DNA of 45,281 nt, taken from an uncultured bacterium. Its GTDB lineage: Bacteria > Myxococcota_A > UBA9160 > SMWR01. The number at the start of each line of letters is the position of its first letter. Position 1 is the stretch's first letter. Positions 32,224 through 45,087 of the stretch are shown here, one piece after another. The position numbers and the translations under genes are program-made. Location of the stretch: positions 1 through 45,281 of the forward strand of contig CALDCK010000153.1 of assembly GCA_937937315.1 (NCBI GenBank), in the 5' to 3' direction. The notes under the pieces are model-generated. The model saw nothing but the letters and a program-made list of their open reading frames with translations. It had not been told where the DNA came from and did not search any database.

Positions 32224-33941
32224 CAGTTCGAGACTCCGTAGCTCGGATAGAAGGAGATGGGGGACCTGGAGGGCGCATCGCGCAGGGAGAGGACCAGCAG
32301 GCCTTCTCCGGCGCCTCCCTCGAGACGCGCCACGTGGGTGCCGGCGGAGAGGTCCGCGATCGCACCTGGAGCGAGGGACACGCCGTCGACCTCCAGGGAT
32401 GCGTCGAGGTCCCGGGGCAGCCAGCGATAGGGCCCGGCGACGATCAGATCGAGGGCCTGGGCCTCGCCGCTCTCGGCCCGAATGCGTCGGCCCGCGACGA
32501 AGACCGAATCCCGGTAGGGCTGGTAGTGCTCCGCAAAGAAGCGGCGCAGCTCCAGCGGAAACTGATTCAGGCGGAAGGACTCGACCAGGTAGTGCACGGG
32601 CCTGACCCGGAAGTGTTCCTTCAGCCAGGCGATCTGATGCTCGCGATAGGGACCTTCGAAGCGGCGGTAGAGGGTCTGGGAGAGCCACACGCCGAGGGGC
32701 TGGGGGGAGCCGCAGAAGACGGCCCCTTCGGGCTGGAAGCCCTCGTGGGTCGGCGCGAAGTTGCGGTGGACGAAGGCCAGGCTCTCGCGCTGGACGGCCT
32801 GGGTGTCCCGCAGCAGAAGGCCCTGGGCGGCGATGGCGGGAAGCGCGAGCCCGAGCCAGAGGGCGGCCAGGGCGGGGCGTCGCCAGTCGGGTCGGAGGGC
32901 GAAGAGGCGCTCGGAGACCGGGCCGATCGCCAGGGCGCCCGCGACGGCGGGGAAGAGCCCGAGGGTCATCCAGAAGTAGGAGAAGGCGGCGGCGTGGAAC
33001 AGCCCGACCGCCGTTCCGAGGGCGAGCACGGCCCAGGCCAGGGCCAGCCAGCGCTCTCCCCGACGCTCGCGCCAGGCGAGCAGCGATGCGGCGACGAGGC
33101 CCGCGCCGAGGGCCAGGTGGGGCACGAGGGTCGGCAGCAGGGCGGCGTACTGGCTGTAGCCGATCGTGTGGCGGTAGTAGGGGAAGACGATCTCCCGGGC
33201 CGACGAGAGCTGCGGCGCCACCAGGTGCTTCGCCGCGTGGGTCTCGGGCAGGGTGAAGAGCCACATCGAGAGAGCGCGGTAGCCGAGCACCACGGCTCCG
33301 AAGCCGGCGACCGTGAGGACGCCGCGCCAGGCGTCGCGCCGCACCACGAGGGAGCCACTCACGAAGAGACGTCCCGCGGCGAGCAATGCCATGAGCGCCC
33401 CGCCGTAGGCGAGCTTCTGGGATCCGAGCCAGCCGATGCCGAAGGCCAGCCCCGCGGCGAGGGCGAGGCCCGGGGCCCGTTCCGATCGCAGCAGGGCCAC
33501 GCCGCCCCAGGTGGCGCCGAGGAGCGCCACGTGATCCGTGCGCACCTGGATCGACCATTCCAGGAAGACCGGGAGCAGGGCCAGGAGTCCCACGCCGAGG
33601 GCCGCATCGTGAAAGCGGTGCGCGCGATCGCGTAGCAGCTCCGCGAGGGCGACGAAGAGGCCTGCCAGGATTGCGAAGGTGAAGACGAGCCAGAGCCATC
33701 GCGCGCTACGGCCGACGCTCATCTCGTCGAGGCAATCCTCGACCAGGGGCATGACCAGGATCTGGGCCAGGCCCGGCCGACCGCCGCTGCGCAACACGCC
33801 GTCGGAGAGCGTGCGCGCCACCGAGTCGAAGAAGGCGAACTCGTCCCAGTTGAAGGCCGCCCGTTGGAGGGTCATCGCCCGCACCCCGACGAGCAGTGCG
33901 AGGCCGGCGACGACGAGCGCGATCCGGCTCCGGGTCGTCAC
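32223..33941 (-). CDS. GT39/PMT-like integral membrane glycosyltransferase
   Basis: 572 residues from the GTG at 33941, overlapping the upstream stop (GTGA). There are roughly ten hydrophobic helices through residue 400, with the acidic extracytoplasmic motif NWDEFAFFDSVARTL after helix one, as in ArnT/PMT/GT39 enzymes where the first-loop acidic residues are catalytic. Next come HAAKHLVAPQ...YYRHTIGYSQY and a soluble C-terminal portion (VHYLVESFRLNQFP...YQPYRDS) and a beta-rich end. Enzymes of this fold use polyprenyl-phosphate sugars on the periplasmic side, suggesting modification of the glycan after lipid transfer. Family placement is by pattern. Confidence 0.8.
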   Translation of the reverse strand: MTTRSRIALVVAGLALLVGVRAMTLQRAAFNWDEFAFFDSVARTLSDGVLRSGGRPGLAQILVMPLVEDCLDEMSVGRSARWLWLVFTFAILAGLFVALAELLRDRAHRFHDAALGVGLLALLPVFLEWSIQVRTDHVALLGATWGGVALLRSERAPGLALAAGLAFGIGWLGSQKLAYGGALMALLAAGRLFVSGSLVVRRDAWRGVLTVAGFGAVVLGYRALSMWLFTLPETHAAKHLVAPQLSSAREIVFPYYRHTIGYSQYAALLPTLVPHLALGAGLVAASLLAWRERRGERWLALAWAVLALGTAVGLFHAAAFSYFWMTLGLFPAVAGALAIGPVSERLFALRPDWRRPALAALWLGLALPAIAAQGLLLRDTQAVQRESLAFVHRNFAPTHEGFQPEGAVFCGSPQPLGVWLSQTLYRRFEGPYREHQIAWLKEHFRVRPVHYLVESFRLNQFPLELRRFFAEHYQPYRDSVFVAGRRIRAESGEAQALDLIVAGPYRWLPRDLDASLEVDGVSLAPGAIADLSAGTHVARLEGGAGEGLLVLSLRDAPSRSPISFYPSYGVSN

Positions 33942-35989
33942 GACGCGACCCCGCGGATCGCGCGCACCAGGGGATTCGGAAGCCAGGGGCGGTCGAGCCG
34001 ACTCGGTCCGCGCCACAGGCCCGCACGGGCGGGTCGGGGCGTCTCGGAGAGATCCGTCAGCAGGTCGAAGAAGGCCACGGCGCGCTCGCGCGCGTCGAAG
34101 CGTGCCCGGACTCGCGCGACGGCCGCCGTCGAGCAGCGCTCCAGCAGCGTGCGATCTCGGGCCAGCTGTGCGATCGCGTCGGCGAAGGATGTCGCGTCGC
34201 CGACCGCAGCCAGAAAGCCGCTTCTCCCCGGCTCCACCGCCTCGCGGACGCCGCTCGCCAGGTTCGAGGAGACGGGCACGACTCCCGCGGCCATGGCTTC
34301 GAGAAGAGAGAGGGGGAGCCCTTCGGCGCGTGAGGGGAGCACGAAGACGTCCTGCTCGACGAGATGATCCGCGACCTCCGCGGGAGTCAGTGCGCCGGCG
34401 AAGCGGACGCGGGGACATCCGTCGAAGGCCCGTCGCAGCGCGGCCTCGTCGGGGCCGGCTCCGATGAGCGTCCACTGGACCTGCCAGCCCGCGGCCAGGA
34501 GGTGGCCGTCGATCTCGGGCAGGTCGAGCACGCCTTTGCTGCGATCGAAACGCCCGCTGTAGACGAGACGCAGGGGCCCTCCCGTCGCGTGGCGGGTGCG
34601 CTCGGGAATCGGCACGCCGCTGGGAAGCTGGTGGATCTGCTCTTCGCGCTCCGGGAGGCGTCGGCGCAGCTCGTCGCGAATGCGGGCGCTCACCGCGACG
34701 AAGGCATCGACGTGGGCGCCGTAGCGCTCTGCCAGGCGGTAGTGGGTCTCCACGTCGCCGTGGAGGATCTGCACCACGGCTCGGCCCGGGTCCCGCCACG
34801 CGGCGAGAGCGAGACCGAAGAAGTCGCTCGCCACCAGGACGCCGGGCCCCGGCGGCGCGGCGCGGCGAACGCGGCGGAGCACCGAGAAGAGATTCTCCGC
34901 AGGCCAGTCGTGCTCGACGTGAACGCTGCGATCCACCGCGAGGTCGAGGGCTTCGGGACGGCTCGCGTGGCGCGAGCCGCGCCGCTCGATCCAGCAGGCT
35001 TCGATCGGGAGCGCATCGTCGGGTCGCGCCGTCGCGAGGTGGGAGACGAAGCTCGCCACCCCTCCCAGGGCATCCGGCAGGACGAAGCGGGCCGTCGGGC
35101 GAGTCGTCGCCCGCGGAAGGACCCGCTCGAGACCGCGAGCCAGCTTGCGGCCGAGGAGTGCGCGGGCGATCGATCCGCGGTGTGCTCGGGGAAGGGCTGC
35201 GCGCGGGCTCTCCGCCAGGGCGCACCAGACGTTCTCCCGGGCCCGATCGCAGGCCCCCGCGGCGAACTGGGCCCCGGCCCAGTGCATCCGCACGTGACTC
35301 CGGAGCGGTGGGTCGAGGGAGAAGAGGTGTCGCTCCGCAGCTCTCCAGGCGGCTGCCCTCGCCTGGTCCGCGCGTCGCGCCGTCAGTGAGGATCCGTGGT
35401 CGCGATATCGATAGAGCACGTCGTGCACCGCGGCGAAGCGGAACTGGCTCGAGGCGCGCAGCCAGAAGTCGTAGTCCTCGGCGAGGAAGAGGCTTTCGTC
35501 GAAGCCCCCGAGCTCCTCGTGCACCTCGCGCCGGTAGAGAAAGCAGGCGCCGATGACGTTCCGCAGCGGGAGCGCGGCGATGGGCCCGACCCGCACGCGG
35601 CGCTCGCTCTCCCCGTCGAAGCGGAGATAGTCGGCGTAGACGACGTCGGCGGTGGGTGTGCCTTCGAGACGCTCGAGCATGCGCTCGATCGCCCCGTCGT
35701 CGAAGAGGTTGTCGTCGCTGGTCCAGGTGAAGTGAGCGCCCCGCGCCGACCGGAACCCCGCGTTGAGAGCCGCGGGGAGTCCGCGATTCGGCGTCAGTGC
35801 GATCAGGCGGATCCGGGCGTCGCGCCGCGTCCAGTCGCGCATCCGCTCCGGCGTCTCGTCCGTCGAGCCGTCGTCGACGAGCAGGAGCTCCCAGTCCTTT
35901 TCGGTCTGGGCGACGACGGAGCCTACGGCCTCGTCGAGGTAGGTGACGCCGTCATGGCACGGCAGCACGATGGAGACGAGGGGCGTCAT
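33938..35989 (-). CDS. Bifunctional GT2-GT4 glycosyltransferase fusion
   Basis: 683 residues from the ATG at 35989. Residues 1-230 form a GT2 domain: VSIVLPCHDGVTYLDEAVGSVVAQ, LLVDDGSTDETPE, FTWTSDDNLFDDGAI (TSDDN metal site) and LAEDYDFWLRAS. Residues about 310-680 form a GT4 GT-B domain: FVLPDALGGVASFVSHLA, QILHGDVETHYRLAERYG, PSGVPIPE, RLVYSGRFDRSKGVLDLPE, GAGPDEAALRRAF and PSRAEGLPLSLLEAMAAGVVPVSS. The helical middle links them. Both sites look intact, so one chain may add two successive sugars. Overlaps genes on both sides by four bases. Confidence 0.9.
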   Translation of the reverse strand: MTPLVSIVLPCHDGVTYLDEAVGSVVAQTEKDWELLLVDDGSTDETPERMRDWTRRDARIRLIALTPNRGLPAALNAGFRSARGAHFTWTSDDNLFDDGAIERMLERLEGTPTADVVYADYLRFDGESERRVRVGPIAALPLRNVIGACFLYRREVHEELGGFDESLFLAEDYDFWLRASSQFRFAAVHDVLYRYRDHGSSLTARRADQARAAAWRAAERHLFSLDPPLRSHVRMHWAGAQFAAGACDRARENVWCALAESPRAALPRAHRGSIARALLGRKLARGLERVLPRATTRPTARFVLPDALGGVASFVSHLATARPDDALPIEACWIERRGSRHASRPEALDLAVDRSVHVEHDWPAENLFSVLRRVRRAAPPGPGVLVASDFFGLALAAWRDPGRAVVQILHGDVETHYRLAERYGAHVDAFVAVSARIRDELRRRLPEREEQIHQLPSGVPIPERTRHATGGPLRLVYSGRFDRSKGVLDLPEIDGHLLAAGWQVQWTLIGAGPDEAALRRAFDGCPRVRFAGALTPAEVADHLVEQDVFVLPSRAEGLPLSLLEAMAAGVVPVSSNLASGVREAVEPGRSGFLAAVGDATSFADAIAQLARDRTLLERCSTAAVARVRARFDARERAVAFFDLLTDLSETPRPARAGLWRGPSRLDRPWLPNPLVRAIRGVAS

Positions 35990-38973
35990 CGGGTGACGTC
36001 CCCTCGCACCCGTCCGCGCCAGGCGACGAACAGCCCGTCGGGCAGATCCGGGCCGGCGATGTCTTCGACGCTCACCGAATCGCAGGCCTCGCCCAGCCAG
36101 CGCTCGACCTGGGAGCGATCGAGCCACTGCTCCCAGGCGGCGGTCTCGAGGGCGCCGGCGCGGCGCGCGTCCTTGTCGACGATCACGACGTGGCCCCCTG
36201 GACGGACGACCCTCGAGAGCTCGCGCACGGCGGCCCGGGGGTCCACGGCGTGCTCGAGGACTTCGACGCCGAACGCGTAGTCGAACTCGCCGTCGGCGCA
36301 GGGGAGATCGAGGATGCTGCCCCGGCGCTTCTCCAGGGAGTCTGGGGCGTGTGCCAGGAGCGCGTCCGAGAGGTCCACCCCCACGAGGCGGGCGTCCGGT
36401 CGCTGCTCGGCGAGGGCCCGGGCGAAGCGCCCCTTGCCGCAACCGGCGTCGAGGATGCGCGGAGCGTCGAGGTCGGGCATGCCGCGAAGGACCGCCGCGA
36501 GACGCGGGTCCCGCGGGTCGATCCGGTCGGGGAAGCGCGCGACGTCGTGATCGAAGTCGCGGCGGATGTGCCAGGCGGCGGCGTCGAGGAAGAACTTCGC
36601 GGCCCAGGTGATCTCGGCCTCCGGGAAGTAGTTGGCGCGACGTCCACTGGAGCCCCGGAAGCCTCCGCTCGGTCGCTGGATCGATCGCAGGTAGGCGAGG
36701 GCCCTGTCCGCTGGGGCGCGGTCGTCGAGGGCGTACCAGGCGACGGCGTACTGTGCGACGGCCGGTGTGCACACCCAGCGCGCGTCCGGATAGGCGGGCA
36801 GGGCGCCGTCCTGGCGCTGGCGCCAGGCGATCTCCCGAAGCCCCCGTCGCGCGAGCTCGGGCTCTCCGAGATCGACCCACGCCTCCACGACGTAGGCGTG
36901 GAAGTGGGAGAGGGTGTCGAAGTCGACGAGGCCCGGTCTCTCGCTGTAGTGGCGGACGGCCCGGGCGACTCCGTCCCGGTAGCTCGGAACGCCGAAGCGG
37001 TCTGCAGCGATCCGCAGGGGCTCGAGGGCGTAGAGGTGGATGGAGTCCGGCACCCGGCGACCGCCGGGGAGCGCCCAGTAGCGGGTGTCCGGCGTGTCGA
37101 CCCGACCGTCGGGGCCGATCCGGGTGAGCAGCCAGTCGCAGCCGCGGCGCACCGACTCCTCGAATCCGTCGGCGCGCGCGTCGGTGGCCAGGAGTCCCTT
37201 GAGGATCTGACCCGTGTCGAAGGTGTAGGGAGTCGTCGAGCCCGGAGCCGACCAGGATCCGTCGTCGTTCTGGATCGTCACCAGCCAACGCGCCAGCTCC
37301 TGGGCGAGCTCGTGCTGTCCCCAGGCGTGGAGCGTCGGGATCGCATAGCCCGTGACCTCGGGGTAGGGCGTGGGGTCGACGTCGCTGACCGCGAGGCCGC
37401 CGTCGGGCTGCTGACGTGCGCGCAGCCAGGCGACGGCGCGGGTCAGCCCCTCGTGCAGGTCGGGCTGGTGCGCAGTGCGGTCGCGCTGCAGCGCCCGCCG
37501 TACCCTTCGCACGACGCGTCCTGCCCGAGCACGTGCACGCTTCGGAAGAGCGGCCGGATCGAGGGCGCGTATGCGGCACTCGGTGCGCAGCCGGCGCGAG
37601 AGCGGGGCCCGCGAGAGGACCAGCAGGGGCCGTCCGTAGTCGCCGCTGGTGGCGATCGTCTCCCGGTGGCCGAGGCCGAGCACCCGCTGGATCTCGTCGA
37701 TCTCCGCCGCGAGGCTTCCGCGCTCGGGGTAGAACCGGTCCTGGCTCGCCATCTCCGCGATCAAGACCTCCGGACCGATGCGAGCGAGGTCGGCCAGGAA
37801 GGCGTCCTTCGACTCGATGTGATGGTGGACCGAGAGCAACGTCACGACGTTGGCGTCTCCGATCTCGCCGGCAAGTGCATCGCGGCCGCACACCTTCACG
37901 TGGAACTCCGCATCCGATCCCTCGACGAAGGCCAGAGCGCGCGCGGCGTCGACGAATGGGGCGGCCCCTTCGACGCCGACCGAGCGGTCCACGCACGCCT
38001 CCCGCGACGCGGCGATGCAGAAGGCGCCGAGGTTCGCACCCACGTCGAGGTGATGGATCGGTCCCAGATCGCGGGCGAGTCCGCGCAGCAGGATTCGCAG
38101 CCAGTCGAGGCGCCGGTCTTCCGCGGGCCGCTGTCCCGCAACCTCGACGTCTCCGACCCGGACCGATTGATACACCCGGGGGTCCGGCTCCTGGAGCGGG
38201 TCGCGATTGAACTCGCAGTCCCGGTCGTAGGCGCAGCGCGCGAGCAGCTCGGGCAGGCGCTCGCTCACGCGATCGCGGAAGACCTGCTCGAGGCGGGCGA
38301 GGCAGGTCCAGCGCGGCTCGTAGTGATCCGACTCCGGATAGGCTCCCAGATTTCCGAGGGACGTCTCGCCGCAGGCGTCGAGGGAAGCCTCGAAGGGACC
38401 CGACTGGGCCAGGCGTCGCGCCTCCTCGAAGTCGACGATCACGATCCGGTCTCCGCGGAAGCAGAGATTGTGCTCGTGGAGGTCGGTGTGGACCACGCCC
38501 TGGTCGAAGAGAGCCCGGGCAGCGGCGCGCAGGTCCTGCCAGGCCCGCAGGAGGGCCGCCGCATCGAGGCGCTCGTTGGCAGTCTCGAAGGGTTCGAGCC
38601 ATTCGAGGGCCAGGAGCTGGAAGCCCGCCTCTTCGTCGAAGAAGCGCACCCGCGGAAGCCACTCCCCGGAGAGGCTCGTCAGGAAGTCGACCTCGTTCGA
38701 GAGGGAAGGCTTGCGCGGAAACCCGGGCTCGCCCTCGAGTGCGCTCTCGACCCAGACGGTCTCGTGCTTGATCTTGAGGAGCATCTGCTCCGGCCCGGCG
38801 TCCACGCGAAACAGCGTGGAGCCGCCGCCGGGCTCCCAGCTGCGCGGCAGGTGGGCGACCTCGTAGGAGGTGCGGAGGTTGCGACGCAGCACCTCGTCCA
38901 CGATCCAGGGCAGCTCGAGCACCCGGTCGAGATGGGCCTGCTTGTTGCTCAGGGCTTCCGGATCGAAGCGCAT
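35986..38973 (-). CDS. Four-domain fusion: kinase-like, methyltransferase, cyclase-like alpha-barrel, methyltransferase
   Basis: 995 residues. Residues about 50-190: protein-kinase/LPS-kinase fold, with MLLKIKHE (lysine 67 or 69), E94, the catalytic loop VHTDLHEHNL (D164, N169) and IVDFEE in place of DFG. Residues about 295-440: a SAM-dependent methyltransferase beginning HLDVGANLGAFCIAA, with SVHHHIESKDAF. Residues about 500-800: alpha/alpha repeats with QPDGGLAVSD, QNDDGSWSAPG and QRPSGGFRGSSG, like the barrel of squalene-cyclase/prenyltransferase-type proteins. Residues about 835-990: a second methyltransferase, ILDAGCGKGRFARAL and GVDLSDALL. Beside Wzm/Wzt, the kinase-plus-methyltransferase set recalls WbdD, which caps O-antigen chains with methyl phosphate. 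Capping is inferred; the barrel domain's role is unknown. Confidence 0.88.
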   Translation of the reverse strand: MRFDPEALSNKQAHLDRVLELPWIVDEVLRRNLRTSYEVAHLPRSWEPGGGSTLFRVDAGPEQMLLKIKHETVWVESALEGEPGFPRKPSLSNEVDFLTSLSGEWLPRVRFFDEEAGFQLLALEWLEPFETANERLDAAALLRAWQDLRAAARALFDQGVVHTDLHEHNLCFRGDRIVIVDFEEARRLAQSGPFEASLDACGETSLGNLGAYPESDHYEPRWTCLARLEQVFRDRVSERLPELLARCAYDRDCEFNRDPLQEPDPRVYQSVRVGDVEVAGQRPAEDRRLDWLRILLRGLARDLGPIHHLDVGANLGAFCIAASREACVDRSVGVEGAAPFVDAARALAFVEGSDAEFHVKVCGRDALAGEIGDANVVTLLSVHHHIESKDAFLADLARIGPEVLIAEMASQDRFYPERGSLAAEIDEIQRVLGLGHRETIATSGDYGRPLLVLSRAPLSRRLRTECRIRALDPAALPKRARARAGRVVRRVRRALQRDRTAHQPDLHEGLTRAVAWLRARQQPDGGLAVSDVDPTPYPEVTGYAIPTLHAWGQHELAQELARWLVTIQNDDGSWSAPGSTTPYTFDTGQILKGLLATDARADGFEESVRRGCDWLLTRIGPDGRVDTPDTRYWALPGGRRVPDSIHLYALEPLRIAADRFGVPSYRDGVARAVRHYSERPGLVDFDTLSHFHAYVVEAWVDLGEPELARRGLREIAWRQRQDGALPAYPDARWVCTPAVAQYAVAWYALDDRAPADRALAYLRSIQRPSGGFRGSSGRRANYFPEAEITWAAKFFLDAAAWHIRRDFDHDVARFPDRIDPRDPRLAAVLRGMPDLDAPRILDAGCGKGRFARALAEQRPDARLVGVDLSDALLAHAPDSLEKRRGSILDLPCADGEFDYAFGVEVLEHAVDPRAAVRELSRVVRPGGHVVIVDKDARRAGALETAAWEQWLDRSQVERWLGEACDSVSVEDIAGPDLPDGLFVAWRGRVRGDVTR

Positions 38974-40005
38974 TCAGACGTCTCGCGATCCGAAGAGCGC
39001 GTTGCGCAGGAAGTCCACCTGGCTCTCCCACTCATGCTTCATTCGCGCCGCGTCGAGGGCGACCGGGCATTCGAGAACGTCGCCTGCGCCAACCCGCTCG
39101 AACATGCGCAGGCGTGGAACCGCCGCCCCGAAGAGCTGGGCTCGCCCGCCGAGAGCGAGCGCCGCGATGCAGGCGTGGATGCGATCGGTGTAGGTGACCC
39201 GGGCATTCGCGTAGAGGGAGAGATGGTCCGAGGGCAGGTCCGAGATCAGGGTGGCGGGCCTCGTGAAGGCGTCCATCGGCTCCGGGAGGGTCGCGTGATG
39301 GGCGCGCACCACGTGGAGACCGCCCGCGTCGATCGCCGGGGGTGTGTAGGCGGGAGCAGATCCGCGCAGGAGGCGGCGCAGTCGCGTGCGAAGGTTGGGG
39401 CGTCGCCACCCGGCGCCACCCGCTGCCCCGACCTGCGCGGGCTCCTGAGCATTTCGAAGCGGAGGCTCTGCCATCGAGTCGAAGCAGAGCGCGACGTAGG
39501 GGCGGTCTACGAAACGCAGCGGGTCGACCGCACGACCCACGAAGAACGCGCTGTCGACTCCGTCGTGGGCGTGGGTCGCGCAGTCGCGGTAGCGCTCGAA
39601 GGAGTAGGTGTCCCGGGATGCGAAGGCGTGGATGGGGAGGTCGCGGAGGATTTCGCGCACTGCGGCGACCTCGGCATCGTCGTACCGCTCTGCACCTCCT
39701 CCGGCGATTACGATGCGTGCTCCCCGATCGAGGAAGCCGCGAAGGTTCGGCTCGGCACTCCGCAGGTGCTCGACGCTCTGGGTCATGCCCCCCATGACGA
39801 CGTAGTCCGCGTCGATCCAGTCGCCGAGGTGGAAGTCGTTCTCGGGGCGGCCCTGGCGACGCGAGAGATAGGAGGACATACCGCCGATGTGGGCGACCTC
39901 GCCGCGCTCTCCTACCGCCGCGCGCAGCGTCGCGAGTGCGCCCAGGTTGACGAAGGCATTGCCGATGTTCGTGGGCCAGCAGCTTCCGTAGAAGACGACT
40001 CTCAT
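38974..40005 (-). CDS. Polysaccharide pyruvyl transferase family protein
   Basis: 343 residues, immediately abutting the four-domain gene and overlapping Wzt by four bases. The family plan is visible: VVFYGSCWPTNIGNAFVNLGALATL at the N-terminus, VVMGGMTQSVEHL, RIVIAGGGAERYDD, HAFASRDTYSFERY, HDGVDSAFFVG, ISDLPSDHLSLYANARVTYTDRIHACIAALALGG. These enzymes transfer pyruvate from phosphoenolpyruvate to make pyruvate ketals on sugars. The middle, RRPNLRTRLRRLLRG, is a basic insertion. In context it would decorate the exported glycan and add negative charge. Some family members have other roles, so the reaction is inferred. Confidence 0.8.
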   Translation of the reverse strand: MRVVFYGSCWPTNIGNAFVNLGALATLRAAVGERGEVAHIGGMSSYLSRRQGRPENDFHLGDWIDADYVVMGGMTQSVEHLRSAEPNLRGFLDRGARIVIAGGGAERYDDAEVAAVREILRDLPIHAFASRDTYSFERYRDCATHAHDGVDSAFFVGRAVDPLRFVDRPYVALCFDSMAEPPLRNAQEPAQVGAAGGAGWRRPNLRTRLRRLLRGSAPAYTPPAIDAGGLHVVRAHHATLPEPMDAFTRPATLISDLPSDHLSLYANARVTYTDRIHACIAALALGGRAQLFGAAVPRLRMFERVGAGDVLECPVALDAARMKHEWESQVDFLRNALFGSRDV

Positions 40006-41267
40006 GCGGGGCTCTCCGCGTCCGACTTCGCGGACTCGATCGACCAGGATTGATGCAGCAGGCAGCGGCCCCCCCAGCCCTCGGGTGGCAGGCGGCCGGT
40101 GCCGAAGAAATCACCCCCTTCTACGAGGAGGGGCGCGGCTCGGCGCTCGAAGAGCAGACACTCCGAGCCGGCGAGGACCTTCAGCTCGAGGGTGTAGGCG
40201 CCGGGAACCAGGGGCAGCTCGCGGACGAGGCACTGCACCCGGTGGGTGCCGGGCTGGAGGTCCGACTCGGCTCCCGCCACCGCGCTGCTCAACACGGCGA
40301 CCCGCGCGCCGAGGGCGTCGTTCACCGCGAGCTGGATTCCGATGCGGCGCAGGGGCGCCGCGCAGGCGAGGTCGAGGCGCAGCGAGAATGATCGGCCCGA
40401 TTGAACGGCGCCGAGGGGCAGGTCATCCCGATCGACCAGCTCGATAGTGGTGACTTCGAGGCCTCCGTCGGCGCTGCGAGCGATGGGCCCGTCGGGGGTC
40501 GGTCCGACTGCCGCGCGGGCGAGGTACTCGGCGATCACGCTGCGCACGTCGCCGCGGGCCGCGACCTGGCCTCGATCCAGCAGCAGGGCCCGGTCGCACA
40601 GGCCCTCTACCGCCGCCATGTTGTGGCTCACGAAGAGCACGGTGCGACCGCTGTGAGCGACCTCGCTCATCTTGCCCAGACAACGCTGCTGGAAGGCGAC
40701 GTCGCCGACGGCGAGAACCTCGTCGATGATCAGGATCTCGGGCTCGAGGTGCGCCGCGACCGCGAAGGCGAGGCGCATACGCATTCCCGAGGAGTAGCGC
40801 TTGACCGGGGTGTCGAGGAACGCCTCGATCCCGGCGAAGTCGACGATCTCGTCGAAGCGCTGTGCGATCTCGCGGCGACCCATGCCGAGGATGGCGCCGT
40901 TCAAGCGCACGTTCTCGCGACCCGTGAGCTCCGGATGGAAGCCGGTGCCGACCTCGAGCAGGCTGGCGACACGCCCGCGAATCTCGGCCCGACCCCCCGT
41001 GGGTGTCGTGATGCGCGAGAGGATCCTGAGCAGGGTGCTCTTCCCGGCGCCGTTCGCGCCGATGATGCCGAGCACCTCTCCCTCGGCGACTTCGAAGGAC
41101 ACGTCGCGGAGCGCCCAGAGCTCGTCCGGAGCCGCATGCTGGCGACGCGTGCGCCCGAGCAGCGCGGCTGCGGCGCCGACCAGACTCTCGCGCAGGTTGC
41201 CGCTGCGCGTCTCACCCAGGGTGAAGCGCTTCGAGAGCTCCTCGACGCGGATGATGGGTGGTCTCAT
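40002..41267 (-). CDS. wzt: Polysaccharide ABC transporter ATP-binding subunit with C-terminal glycan-binding domain (Wzt type)
   Basis: 421 residues. N-terminal ABC domain: WALRDVSFEVAEGEVLGIIGANGAGKSTLLRIL (Walker A GANGAGKST), the signature YSSGMRMRLAFAVA, Walker B ILIIDEVLAVGD and the H-switch FVSHN. Residues about 265-420 form a beta-sandwich C-terminal domain (TTIELVDRDDLPLGAVQSGRSFSLRLDLAC... GAYTLELKVLAG), the Wzt-C type that binds the finished chain end. Wzt with this domain usually couples export to chain capping, fitting the kinase/methyltransferase gene two places downstream. Four bases separate it from the permease gene. Confidence 0.93.
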   Translation of the reverse strand: MRPPIIRVEELSKRFTLGETRSGNLRESLVGAAAALLGRTRRQHAAPDELWALRDVSFEVAEGEVLGIIGANGAGKSTLLRILSRITTPTGGRAEIRGRVASLLEVGTGFHPELTGRENVRLNGAILGMGRREIAQRFDEIVDFAGIEAFLDTPVKRYSSGMRMRLAFAVAAHLEPEILIIDEVLAVGDVAFQQRCLGKMSEVAHSGRTVLFVSHNMAAVEGLCDRALLLDRGQVAARGDVRSVIAEYLARAAVGPTPDGPIARSADGGLEVTTIELVDRDDLPLGAVQSGRSFSLRLDLACAAPLRRIGIQLAVNDALGARVAVLSSAVAGAESDLQPGTHRVQCLVRELPLVPGAYTLELKVLAGSECLLFERRAAPLLVEGGDFFGTGRLPPEGWGGRCLLHQSWSIESAKSDAESPA

Positions 41268-41271
41268 GTCC

Positions 41272-42147
41272 TCACACCCAGTCCGCGAAGACGCGTTCCA
41301 TGCGGCGGAAGTAGATCGCGCCGCCGACGAGGAGGACGACCACGGCGATGCTCGAAGCCAGGAGCGCCCCTGTGGCCGGCGCGGGTCCGCCGATCAGCGC
41401 CCAGCGGAAGCCCTCGACGACGCCCACCATCGGGTTGGCGGCGTAGAGCCAGTGGGCCCAGGGCGGTGCCTCCCCGAGCACGCTCGCGGTGGTGTAGACG
41501 CAGGGCGTGACGAAGAACCAGAGCTGGGTGAGGAAGGGCAGGGCGTAGCGGACGTCGCGATAGAGGGCGTTCAGCGCGGAGAGCCAGAGCGAGACCGCGA
41601 GCGCCGTGGCGAGCGCCAGGACGACGAAGAAGGGAAGGAGTGCGATTGCTGCGCCGGGGACGATGCCGTAGGCGAGCATCATCAGGAGCAGAACGGCGAA
41701 GGCGGCGCCGAAGTCGACGAGGGCCGCGATGATCGGCGCGATGGGGAGCACGAGGCGCGGGAAGTAGACCTTCGTGACCAGGTTCTGGTTCTGGACGATG
41801 CTGTTGCCCGAGAACGAGAGGGCGGTGGCGAAGAGCTGCCACGGCACCAGGGCGCAGAAGGTCGACACGGCGTAGGGCACGCCTTCGACCGTGGGCTTTC
41901 CCTCGGCACCCATCAGGAAGCCGAAGAGCACACTGAACACGACCATCGTGAGCAGGGGCTGGAGCACCGCCCAGGAGACGCCGAGCGCCGCCTGCTTGTA
42001 CCGGACCTTCACGTCCCGCAGGGCCAGGAACCCGATCAGCTCCCGGAAGCGCCAGAGCTCCGCCAGGTCGACCGTGCCGAGGCCGCGAGGGGGCGTGATG
42101 ACGATGCCGTCGATCCGCCCGGATCTGCTCTCGTCCGGTTCCGTCAT
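41272..42147 (-). CDS. wzm: Polysaccharide ABC transporter permease (Wzm type)
   Basis: 291 residues with six hydrophobic helices. Family phrases: LAELWRFRELIGFLALRDVKVRYKQAALGVSWAVLQPLLTMVVFSVLFGF at the N-terminus, FCALVPWQLFATALSFSGNSIVQNQNLVTKVYFPRLVLPI in the middle and FLTQLWFFVTPCVYT near the end, all typical of ABC-2 exporters of O-antigen or teichoic-type polymers. It forms the inner-membrane channel with Wzt. First gene of the minus-strand polysaccharide operon; 135 bases separate it from the upstream gene and should hold the promoter. Confidence 0.93.
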   Translation of the reverse strand: MTEPDESRSGRIDGIVITPPRGLGTVDLAELWRFRELIGFLALRDVKVRYKQAALGVSWAVLQPLLTMVVFSVLFGFLMGAEGKPTVEGVPYAVSTFCALVPWQLFATALSFSGNSIVQNQNLVTKVYFPRLVLPIAPIIAALVDFGAAFAVLLLMMLAYGIVPGAAIALLPFFVVLALATALAVSLWLSALNALYRDVRYALPFLTQLWFFVTPCVYTTASVLGEAPPWAHWLYAANPMVGVVEGFRWALIGGPAPATGALLASSIAVVVLLVGGAIYFRRMERVFADWV

Positions 42148-42687: not shown

Positions 42688-42907
42688 GTCGACCGAGAGA
42701 GCAAGCACCGTGCCACGGGTCGCGGGCGGGCGACGGAGGGCACCGGGTCGGCCCGGATCTACGGAGCCTCATGAGTTCGGGGACTTGCACGAGCCCCGTA
42801 GCTCGGGGTGCCGGCTCGGGACCTCCGCCCGAGCGCAGCCGCATTAGGCATGCCGTGTCATGATGCCCCTCCGCGGTGGGGCCAATCGCCGGTTATCCTT
42901 CCGGGCG

Positions 42908-43564
42908 ATGTGGGGTTGGGCGACCGCGGCAGCGCTCGGGGCCCTGGGCGCGTGGGGGTGCGCCCGGATCTTCGTCGGCTATCCGCCTCCGTCCGGGTCT
43001 CCCCAGGCGCTCCGGCGCCGGGAGCTCGCCACTCTCGCCGCCGTCGCCGAGGCCCTCTTCCCACCCGGCGGAGAGATCCCACCTTCGGGGTCCGATGCGG
43101 GCATCGCGGCCTACGTCGATCGGCTCGTCGCCGCGTCCCAGCCGAGACAGCGTCAGCTGATGCGGGCGCTCTTCTTCCTGATCGAGCACGGCACCCTCGC
43201 CTTTCCCGCACCGGGGGGCCTCTCGGGCCTGCGGCGCTTCTCGGGTCTCGACGCCTCTCAGCGGGAAGCCGTCCTCGACGCCTGGCAGCACAGCGGCTGG
43301 TTCGTGCGGCGGCTCGTCTTCACGAGCCTGCGAGCGCTCTGCACCCTCGGTTACTTCGCCGACCCGACCGTGTTGCGACGCCTGCGCCTCGCGCCCTACG
43401 CGATCGACACTCCCGTGTGTGAGGCCGACCTGCGCTACCCGCGGATCGGAGCGGCCGCGAGCTCGATCCCGTACACGGCGGACGACCTCACCCCGCCGAG
43501 CGACGGCGCGCCCATCGACCTCGACGGCCCGTGGATGGCGGGATTTGCGGAGGACGCGGATTGA
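42908..43564 (+). CDS. Gluconate 2-dehydrogenase subunit 3-like partner of the GMC oxidoreductase
   Basis: 218 residues from the ATG at 42908 (MWGWATAAALGALGAWGC); an ATG at 42860 would add 16 residues. The N-terminus is a hydrophobic anchor with a cysteine, AWGC, possibly a lipoprotein site. The rest is helical with ELATLAAVAEALFPPGGEIP, SDAGIAAYVDRLVAA and LMRALFFLIEHG, matching the plan of small subunits that accompany GMC dehydrogenases. The stop overlaps the TTG start of the next gene, so the two are translationally coupled. It probably assists export, maturation or electron transfer for the flavoprotein. Family assignment rests on pattern and context. Confidence 0.72.
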   Translation: MWGWATAAALGALGAWGCARIFVGYPPPSGSPQALRRRELATLAAVAEALFPPGGEIPPSGSDAGIAAYVDRLVAASQPRQRQLMRALFFLIEHGTLAFPAPGGLSGLRRFSGLDASQREAVLDAWQHSGWFVRRLVFTSLRALCTLGYFADPTVLRRLRLAPYAIDTPVCEADLRYPRIGAAASSIPYTADDLTPPSDGAPIDLDGPWMAGFAEDAD

Positions 43565-45087
43565 GCGAGGGGGACCTGCGCGTCTTTGCGGGCTACGACC
43601 GCGACTTCACCGAGGAGGCGGACGCGGTCGTGGTGGGCTCCGGGCCCGGCGGTGCGATCGTTGCCGGCGAGCTCACCCGGGCGGGATACCGGGTCGTGCT
43701 CGTCGAGGAGGGCCCCCCCTTCACGCCGGGCGACTACGAGGTGGACGGGGGGCTGTCGATGGCCCGGACCCTGCGGGAGGGAGGGCTGCGGACCACCGTC
43801 GGAACGGTCATGCCCACGATGCAGGCCGTCGCCCTCGGTGGCGGCTCCCTCGTCAACTCTGCGATCTGCAACCGGGCGCCGGAGTTCGTGCTCGATCGCT
43901 GGTGCGAGGACTTCGATCTCTCCGACACGCACCTCTCGGACCTCGATCCCCACTACGACGCCGTCGCCGAGACGATCGGGATCTCGCCCACCCCGGAAGC
44001 CGTCCAGGGTCGCCGCAACCTCCTCTTCCGGGACGGGTGCGACGCCCTCGGCTTCTCGAGCGAGCCGATCGCGCGCAACGTGCGCGGTTGCCGGGGCAGT
44101 GGAGAGTGCTTCACCGGCTGCCGGTCCCGCGCGAAGCAGTCGATGGACATCACGACGGTGCCCGCGGCGCTGCGCGGCGGCGCCACGGTCCTTACCTCGG
44201 CGCGGGTGGAGGCGGTGGAGACCTCCGGCGATCGCGCGATCGGCGTGATGGGACGCATCGTTGCGCCCTTCACCGGACGTCCCTCGCACCGCTTCCGGGT
44301 GCGCGCCCGGGCGGTGGTGCTGGCGGCGGGCTGCATGGCCACGCCGGTGCTGCTCCAGAAGAGCGGGGGCATCGCCAATCGCTCGGGTCAGGTCGGGCGC
44401 AATCTCCAGTTCCATCCCGGGGTGGGGGTGATGGGAATCTTCCCGGACCGGGTCGAGCCCCAGTTCGGCGCAACCCAGGGATACCAGTCCCGGGAGTTCC
44501 TCGAGGCGGGCTTCAAGCTCGAGACCCTGTGGGCACCGCCCGCCCTGCTGGCGGTCCGACTCCCCGGATCGGGCCTCGACCTCAAGCGCCGTCTCGCGGA
44601 CGTGCCGTACTCCGCCGTGTGGGACGCCATCGCGAGCTGCGACCGCTCCCTCGGTCGGGTCGAAGCGCGACGCAGCGGCTTCGATCCGAAGATCACCTGG
44701 CGATTGAATCCCGACGACACGCCGATCCTGGCCGAGGCGGTCTACCGCCTCGCAGAGATCTTCTTCGCCGCCGGCGCCCGTTCTGTTCTCTGCGGGGTTC
44801 ACGGCTTCCCGGACGAGATTCACACCCTCGAAGAGGCGGAGATCCTGCGCCGCCGCACCCTGCGTCCGTCGGACCTGGTGCTCGGCGGCAATCACGCCTT
44901 CTGCACGACGCGCATGCACGGGGACCCCACCCGGGGCGTCGTAGACGAGCTCGGCCGCTGCCACGACCTCGAGAACCTGTGGATCGCCGACAGCGGCGTC
45001 TTTCCGCGCTGCCCGTCGGTGAATCCCATGTGGACGATCATGGCCCTGGCCCGCCGGACCGCTCTCGCACTGGCAGAACGGCTGTAG
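43561..45087 (+). CDS. GMC-family FAD-dependent oxidoreductase
   Basis: 508 residues starting at TTG 43561, which overlaps the previous stop (TTGA) and has GGAGG seven bases upstream; the ORF-track start lies inside the previous gene. FAD site: DAVVVGSGPGGAIVAGELTRAGYRVVLVEEG. Then VALGGGSLVNSAICNRAPE, the cysteine loop CRGSGECFTGCRSRAKQSMD, ARAVVLAAGCMATPVLLQKSG, and the C-terminal flavin-domain phrase RCHDLENLWIADSGVFPRCPSVNPMWTIMALARRTA. This group includes cholesterol oxidase-like and gluconate dehydrogenase-like enzymes oxidising an alcohol. The substrate is not evident. Confidence 0.9.
   Translation: MSEGDLRVFAGYDRDFTEEADAVVVGSGPGGAIVAGELTRAGYRVVLVEEGPPFTPGDYEVDGGLSMARTLREGGLRTTVGTVMPTMQAVALGGGSLVNSAICNRAPEFVLDRWCEDFDLSDTHLSDLDPHYDAVAETIGISPTPEAVQGRRNLLFRDGCDALGFSSEPIARNVRGCRGSGECFTGCRSRAKQSMDITTVPAALRGGATVLTSARVEAVETSGDRAIGVMGRIVAPFTGRPSHRFRVRARAVVLAAGCMATPVLLQKSGGIANRSGQVGRNLQFHPGVGVMGIFPDRVEPQFGATQGYQSREFLEAGFKLETLWAPPALLAVRLPGSGLDLKRRLADVPYSAVWDAIASCDRSLGRVEARRSGFDPKITWRLNPDDTPILAEAVYRLAEIFFAAGARSVLCGVHGFPDEIHTLEEAEILRRRTLRPSDLVLGGNHAFCTTRMHGDPTRGVVDELGRCHDLENLWIADSGVFPRCPSVNPMWTIMALARRTALALAERL

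What the first reader, a model, noticed from the sequence alone, without database searches (positions are those of the whole stretch)
35986..38973. Kinase-methyltransferase-cyclase-like-methyltransferase fusion beside Wzm/Wzt: a WbdD-like chain terminator with extra domains
All four domains show intact motifs (VHTDLHEHN; DVGANLG; repeated DGG/DGSW; LDAGCGKG). WbdD caps O-polysaccharide with methyl and phosphate, and Wzt with a C-terminal glycan-binding domain, present here, reads such caps. The inserted alpha/alpha barrel and second methyltransferase are unusual and may bind or measure the chain, or make a further cap.
Basis: partly seen in the sequence, partly recalled or inferred. Interest (0 to 1): 0.65.

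Follow-up and report, generated by a model that had tools for sequence, protein, structure and literature searches.

The report
Four-domain sugar-chain capping enzyme
A single 995-residue bacterial enzyme in a sugar-chain export operon joins a WbdD-like kinase and methyltransferase to a separate, apparently undescribed barrel-plus-methyltransferase module that recurs in other bacterial sugar-chain loci and, as neighbouring genes, in viral contigs; it probably caps and methylates the chain before export.

Summary
The ORF is real (35986-38973, minus strand, 995 aa): kinase, methyltransferase 1 (MT1), (alpha/alpha) toroid, methyltransferase 2 (MT2), in a tight operon with Wzm and Wzt (Wzt_C). The WbdD analogy is partly supported. 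MT1 alone matches only WbdD in the PDB and keeps three of four residues essential for WbdD methylation (the fourth depends on the alignment), but its overall similarity to WbdD is no better than that of unrelated methyltransferases. The kinase looks intact but generic; the coiled-coil ruler is absent and domain order reversed. The extra domains are not an insertion: toroid-MT2 is a conserved module found alone or in other fusions in six other genomes, usually near a WecB-type epimerase and one GT2 family. Distant toroids adjoin methyltransferase genes in viral contigs. The toroid model (pLDDT 87.5) is closest to MmpH, a methylmannose-polysaccharide hydrolase. In a syntenic relative the fusion is missing; the Wzt C-domain is 31% identical while the rest of the chassis is 50-72%. 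I read it as a cap-forming enzyme (methyl-phosphate end, inferred) plus a glycan-methylating module: a new variant of a known kind.

The parts
35986..38973 (-). four-domain fusion protein, 995 aa
   Evidence: ORF and translation; coding GC pattern
38269..38973 (-). domain 1 (aa 1-235): APH/protein-kinase-like kinase; catalytic HTDLHEHN at aa 162-169 (38467-38490), Mg-binding VDFEEA at aa 180-185
   Evidence: Pfam APH E 3.4e-7; alignment to WbdD kinase z 5.1, to generic kinases z 12-16
37564..38268 (-). domain 2 (aa 236-470): MT1, WbdD-like methyltransferase; Y268, H384, H385 and (alignment-dependent) R448 opposite WbdD Y16, H132, H133, R203
   Evidence: only PDB match is WbdD, E 0.0014; residue correspondence
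37462..37563 (-). basic amphipathic linker (aa 471-504), net charge up to +9 in 18 residues
   Evidence: possible membrane contact is inference
36538..37461 (-). domain 3 (aa 505-812): (alpha/alpha) toroid with YPEVTGY motif (aa 537-543) and conserved residues at the starts of the inner helices
   Evidence: AlphaFold2 model pLDDT 87.5, pTM 0.89; Foldseek top hit MmpH 7qsj; alignments A1-A3
35986..36537 (-). domain 4 (aa 813-995): MT2, class I methyltransferase with EVLEH and IVDKD...WEQW signature shared with toroid-MT2 relatives
   Evidence: Pfam Methyltransf_11 E 1e-24; alignment A2
38974..40005 (-). polysaccharide pyruvyltransferase-like protein, directly upstream in the operon
   Evidence: Pfam PS_pyruv_trans E 2.9e-6, 30 residues matched
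40002..41267 (-). Wzt: ABC exporter ATPase with C-terminal glycan-binding Wzt_C domain
   Evidence: Pfam ABC_tran and Wzt_C
41272..42147 (-). Wzm: ABC-2 exporter membrane subunit
   Evidence: Pfam ABC2_membrane
33938..35989 (-). GT2-GT4 glycosyltransferase; its GT2 half belongs to the GT2 family that accompanies (and in L012 is fused to) toroid-MT2; its start overlaps the fusion's stop
   Evidence: Pfam; blastp; coordinates

Best explanation
It is a cytoplasmic enzyme that finishes a lipid-linked surface polysaccharide before ABC export. The kinase phosphorylates the non-reducing end and MT1 methylates that phosphate, as in WbdD; the resulting cap is what the Wzt C-terminal domain reads. The C-terminal toroid-MT2 module is a separate unit: the toroid holds the glycan in its central cavity and MT2 methylates a sugar, probably one added by the GT2 encoded next door. 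Fusing the two couples sugar methylation to end capping. Shown here: domain make-up, operon context, conservation and modularity of toroid-MT2, intact kinase motifs, retention of WbdD methylation residues (three firmly, one depending on alignment). Inferred: methyl-phosphate chemistry, action at the chain end, recognition by Wzt-C, glycan binding by the toroid, and what MT2 methylates.
For: Operon wzm-wzt-pyr-fusion-GT2/GT4 with overlapping or abutting genes; E. coli O9 has the order wzm-wzt-wbdD-wbdA. MT1 alone finds only WbdD among 177,635 PDB sequences even at E up to 10. MT1 has Y268/H384/H385 opposite WbdD Y16/H132/H133, and R448 opposite R203 in the alignments; mutation of any of these residues abolishes WbdD methylation (PMC3482155). 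None of 31 control methyltransferases keeps all four and only one keeps three. MT2 lacks the HH pair. The kinase keeps HxD...N and DF motifs. Another methyl-phosphate terminator, K. pneumoniae O7, also uses an AmiN-like kinase (PMC11231755). Toroid-MT2 recurs in glycan loci. Syntenic relative G336 shares the chassis (wbaP 72%, wecG 68%, wzm 65%, Wzt-NBD 66%) but has no fusion and a Wzt C-domain only 31% identical, as expected if that domain tracks the cap.
Against: WbdD scores equally with MT2 and with an unrelated methyltransferase, L018, so MT1's overall similarity is weak evidence; R203 falls on a leucine in one alignment scheme and the tail alignment itself is not significant by shuffling. 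The kinase is not specifically WbdD-like and the kinase-MT1 structure model failed. No coiled-coil ruler. No second genome with kinase-MT1 was found, so this half has no comparative support. A Wzt C-domain may diverge with any change of cargo, so 31% does not identify the cap.
Confidence: 0.42

Rival explanations
1. The enzyme decorates sugars along the repeat unit (phosphomethyl and O-methyl groups) rather than capping the end; the Wzt C-domain reads some other feature.
For: Toroid-MT2 occurs with no exporter in the sequence seen around L051 and L053, beside WecB and GT2 genes, which suggests ordinary sugar modification; no ruler is present.
Against: Position beside wzt, and divergence of the Wzt C-domain where the fusion is absent (two loci only); WbdD-type residues in MT1.
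Confidence: 0.3
2. The toroid is an active glycosidase-like or lyase-like enzyme that trims or resets the chain end, as MmpH does for methylmannose polysaccharide, and the methyltransferases mark the trimmed end.
For: Best structural match is MmpH (E 2e-10, TM up to 0.77) and an unsaturated glucuronyl hydrolase is also close; MmpH works in a gene cluster with sugar methyltransferases (PMC9883506); conserved residues sit at the starts of the inner helices.
Against: Fold similarity only, 19% identity; the conserved acid E539 is lysine in L052 and D586 is asparagine in distant relatives, so no catalytic pair is constant.
Confidence: 0.13
3. The toroid acts on an isoprenoid, as its squalene-cyclase-type QW repeats suggest, and the protein modifies the lipid carrier or a terpenoid.
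For: Sequence profile hits to squalene-hopene cyclase and structural hits to class II terpene cyclases.
Against: No DxDD motif anywhere in the protein; relatives lie in glycan loci and, in viral contig L067, among glycosyltransferase genes next to a capsid gene, where a terpene role is implausible.
Confidence: 0.06

Closest known systems
WbdD of E. coli O9a / K. pneumoniae O3 (methyltransferase-kinase chain terminator)
   Same: kinase plus methyltransferase in one protein, encoded after wzm-wzt; MT1 keeps Y16, H132, H133 and possibly R203
   Different: reversed domain order; generic kinase; no coiled-coil ruler; extra toroid-MT2 module
K. pneumoniae O7 terminator ORF6-N (PMC11231755)
   Same: methyl-phosphate terminator that combines a methyltransferase with an AmiN-like kinase and other modules in one protein
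   Different: the O7 protein has a CBM, coiled coil and GT2 modules and no reported toroid; its sequence was not compared here
MmpH, methylmannose polysaccharide hydrolase (PDB 7qsj)
   Same: closest solved fold to the toroid; MmpH functions together with sugar methyltransferases
   Different: 19% identity; the MmpH catalytic residues could not be mapped; MmpH is a stand-alone hydrolase
Class II terpene cyclases / squalene-hopene cyclase C-terminal domain
   Same: QW-type repeats and toroid fold
   Different: no DxDD; glycan-locus context

Membership tests
WbdD-type chain terminator | kinase and methyltransferase fused in one protein | tested here: met
WbdD-type chain terminator | methyltransferase residues Y16, H132, H133 (mutation abolishes methylation) | tested here: met
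   Y268, H384, H385 identical in the alignments that cover them
WbdD-type chain terminator | R203, not conserved in the related methyltransferases NodS and RebM | tested here: inconclusive
   R448 in the alignments, leucine in the free-end alignment
WbdD-type chain terminator | WbdD-type kinase domain | tested here: inconclusive
   z 5.1 against WbdD kinase but 12-16 against generic kinases; structure model failed
WbdD-type chain terminator | domain order methyltransferase then kinase | tested here: not met
   kinase is N-terminal
WbdD-type chain terminator | C-terminal coiled-coil molecular ruler | tested here: not met
   no heptad window in this protein; the WbdD positive control gives several (simple home-made scan)
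WbdD-type chain terminator | encoded beside Wzm/Wzt with a cap-reading C-terminal domain | tested here: met
WbdD-type chain terminator | adds methyl-phosphate to the non-reducing end | not testable with these tools
   needs biochemistry
Class II terpene cyclase | catalytic DxDD motif | tested here: not met
   no DxDD in the 995 aa
MmpH-type glycoside hydrolase | (alpha/alpha)6 toroid fold | tested here: met
   TM up to 0.77, E 2e-10
MmpH-type glycoside hydrolase | catalytic acid D47/D50 and base E262 | not tested
   Foldseek output gives no residue pairing; E539 and D586 are candidates but not constant in the family

The most novel reading that the evidence does not exclude
A ruler-free terminator: the (alpha/alpha) toroid replaces the coiled-coil ruler of WbdD, gripping or counting the chain end, while kinase-MT1 caps it and MT2 adds a second mark; toroid-MT2 is an interchangeable glycan-end module used across bacterial phyla and, as separate genes, by viruses that modify their own virion glycans.
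Probability: 0.14. Interest if true: 0.75.

Novelty: new variant of a known kind. Interest (0 to 1): 0.5.

Why it matters
Chain-end caps decide polysaccharide length and export in the ABC pathway, and the known terminators reviewed in PMC11231755 carry a coiled-coil ruler. This protein has the cap-type enzymes without the ruler and carries a module with no PHROG family and only a weak terpene-cyclase label in Pfam. If the toroid binds glycans, a group of proteins now labelled squalene-cyclase-like would be relabelled as glycan enzymes, and viral glycan cassettes would gain a testable function.

Tried and rejected
Insertion of extra domains into a WbdD-like enzyme: rejected, because toroid-MT2 exists alone (L010, L011) and in other fusions. 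Terpene cyclase: rejected for lack of DxDD and for context. MT1 as WbdD family on overall similarity: not accepted, since MT2 and L018 score equally. Single-sequence structure of kinase-MT1: model useless (pLDDT 40). Search for further kinase-MT1 proteins: only single-domain hits, no viral contig match. Toroid relatives in isolate phage records: none; no PHROG. Plasmid search gave only single-domain matches. Paper searches for a toroid-methyltransferase module found nothing to the point. The organism of the window was not identified.

Full report
OBSERVATION. The ORF 35986-38973 on the minus strand is a continuous 995-codon frame with a coding GC pattern. Pfam gives APH, SQHop_cyclase_C and Methyltransf_11 above threshold. 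Approximate domains: kinase 1-235, MT1 236-470, a strongly basic linker 471-504, toroid 505-812, MT2 813-995. The own genome (a 486-contig assembly, 84.5% complete) holds no second copy; other hits are to MT2-type methyltransferases only.

CONTEXT. Minus-strand order is wzm (41272-42147), wzt with Wzt_C (40002-41267), a pyruvyltransferase-like gene (38974-40005), the fusion, then a GT2-GT4 protein (33938-35989), a membrane protein without Pfam match and a GT4. Genes abut or overlap, so translation is probably coupled (inference). On the plus strand lie WecG/TagA, two GT2, an initiating sugar-phosphate transferase and a GT4. This is an ABC-exported polysaccharide locus. E. coli O9 (strain HS) has wzm-wzt-wbdD-wbdA in the same order (WbdD sequence).

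MT1 AND KINASE AGAINST WbdD. MT1 alone against 177,635 distinct PDB sequences returns only WbdD entries (best E 0.0014). Mutations Y16F, H132A, H133A and R203A abolish WbdD methylation (PMC3482155). In MT1 the first three fall on Y268, H384 and H385; R203 falls on R448 in the alignments but on a leucine in the free-end alignment. Of 31 control methyltransferases (hits of WbdD, MT1 or MT2 taken from other genomes), one keeps three of the four residues, 13 keep two, none keeps four. Against this, WbdD's overall score with MT1 (104, z 13.8) equals that with MT2 (98, z 14.0) and L018 (97, z 14.5), and the tail alignment that carries R203 is not significant by shuffling. The kinase aligns to the WbdD kinase at z 5.1 and to generic Kdo, Ser/Thr and related kinases at z 12-16 (those controls were themselves found with this kinase as query, so the comparison is biased towards them). 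A simple heptad scan finds no coiled coil here but several windows in WbdD. In the K. pneumoniae O7 terminator the kinase is AmiN-like and differs from WbdD's (PMC11231755), so a kinase unlike WbdD's does not exclude the chemistry.

TOROID-MT2 IS A MODULE. Searching 379 genomes of the same phylum with aa 1-815 gave two further genomes, both with toroid-MT2 alone in about 493-501 aa (L010, L011). In another phylum, reached from L012 (a contig titled Mailhella sp.; the bin assignment was not checked), the toroid profile hit 12 of 247 genomes, four with the full module: GT2-toroid-MT2 (L012), GT4 fragment-toroid-MT2-MT (L050, cut at the contig end), MT-toroid-second region-MT2 (L051) and toroid-MT2-MT (L052). 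Alignment A2 of seven modules shows 36-42% identity to the window protein and many invariant residues, including Y537, P538, D586, H690, C735 and, in MT2, D933, K934, W947, E948. A WecB-type epimerase adjoins the module in L010, L011/L053, L012 and L052 and lies one gene away in L051; one GT2 family adjoins or is fused in the window, L012, L051, L052 and L053. The window has WecG but no WecB. Wzm and Wzt accompany the module in the window and in L052 (45% identity for both proteins), not in the sequence seen around L051 and L053. In the phylum of L013, 399 genomes gave no full module, only four distant toroids, three of them fused or adjacent to a methyltransferase (L072, L073, L074).

VIRAL CONTIGS. 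Eleven IMG/VR contigs carry a distant toroid; in eight of them (L062, L064-L069, L071; several near-identical) a methyltransferase gene lies immediately upstream. In L067 the pair lies between a Phage_capsid gene and a head-tail connector gene, among GT4, GT2 and Methyltransf_24 genes. No match was found in isolate phage records or PHROGs.

TOROID STRUCTURE. AlphaFold2 on alignment A3 gives pLDDT 87.5 and pTM 0.89, a barrel of paired helices. Foldseek's best PDB match is MmpH (7qsj, E 2e-10, TM up to 0.77), then drimenyl diphosphate synthase, squalene-hopene cyclases and unsaturated glucuronyl hydrolase. Conserved residues cluster at the starts of the inner helices, the usual active-site mouth of such barrels (one search read; inference). 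No DxDD motif exists. MmpH hydrolyses methylmannose polysaccharide and is encoded with sugar methyltransferases (PMC9883506). The putative catalytic residues of MmpH could not be mapped; E539 and D586 are candidates but vary in relatives.

SYNTENIC RELATIVE. G336, same family as the window genome, keeps wecG 68%, wbaP 72%, a GT2 50%, two GT4 55-57%, wzm 65% and Wzt-NBD 66%, but has a two-GT4 protein after wzt and no trace of the fusion, and its Wzt C-domain is 31% identical. The fusion therefore belongs to a variable, cargo-specific section. The window's Wzt C-domain is related to that of L052 (z 8.8) but not detectably to that of E. coli O9 (z 0.2), so it need not read the same cap as O9.

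CONCLUSION. The protein is best read as a cap-forming enzyme coupled to an independent glycan-methylating module. The first half works plausibly like WbdD but fails two of its defining features (order, ruler), so I do not file it as a WbdD. The second half is a recurrent module for which I found no description in the libraries and papers searched.

Noticed in passing
L067 3199-11891 (viral contig): Glycosylation cassette (GT4, GT2, methyltransferase, toroid, Methyltransf_24, GT2) placed around the major capsid gene and before the head-tail connector gene of a tailed virus.
   Followed up: partly
L116 8260-9570 (same protein as L018): Methyltransferase (related to MT1, 37% over 110 aa) fused to a P-loop kinase-like C-terminal half (VVSGPTAAGKTTF).
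   Followed up: no
L113 8990-10249: Syntenic Wzt in relative G336 whose C-terminal match was reported with one in-frame TGA; the surrounding chassis is conserved with the window.
   Followed up: partly
L050 5706-7637: Methyltransferase joined to a CDP-glycerol glycerophosphotransferase-like domain beside the toroid-MT2 gene.
   Followed up: no
window 42860-45087: Gluconate 2-dehydrogenase subunit 3-like gene followed by a GMC oxidoreductase, next to the exporter operon on the opposite strand.
   Followed up: no
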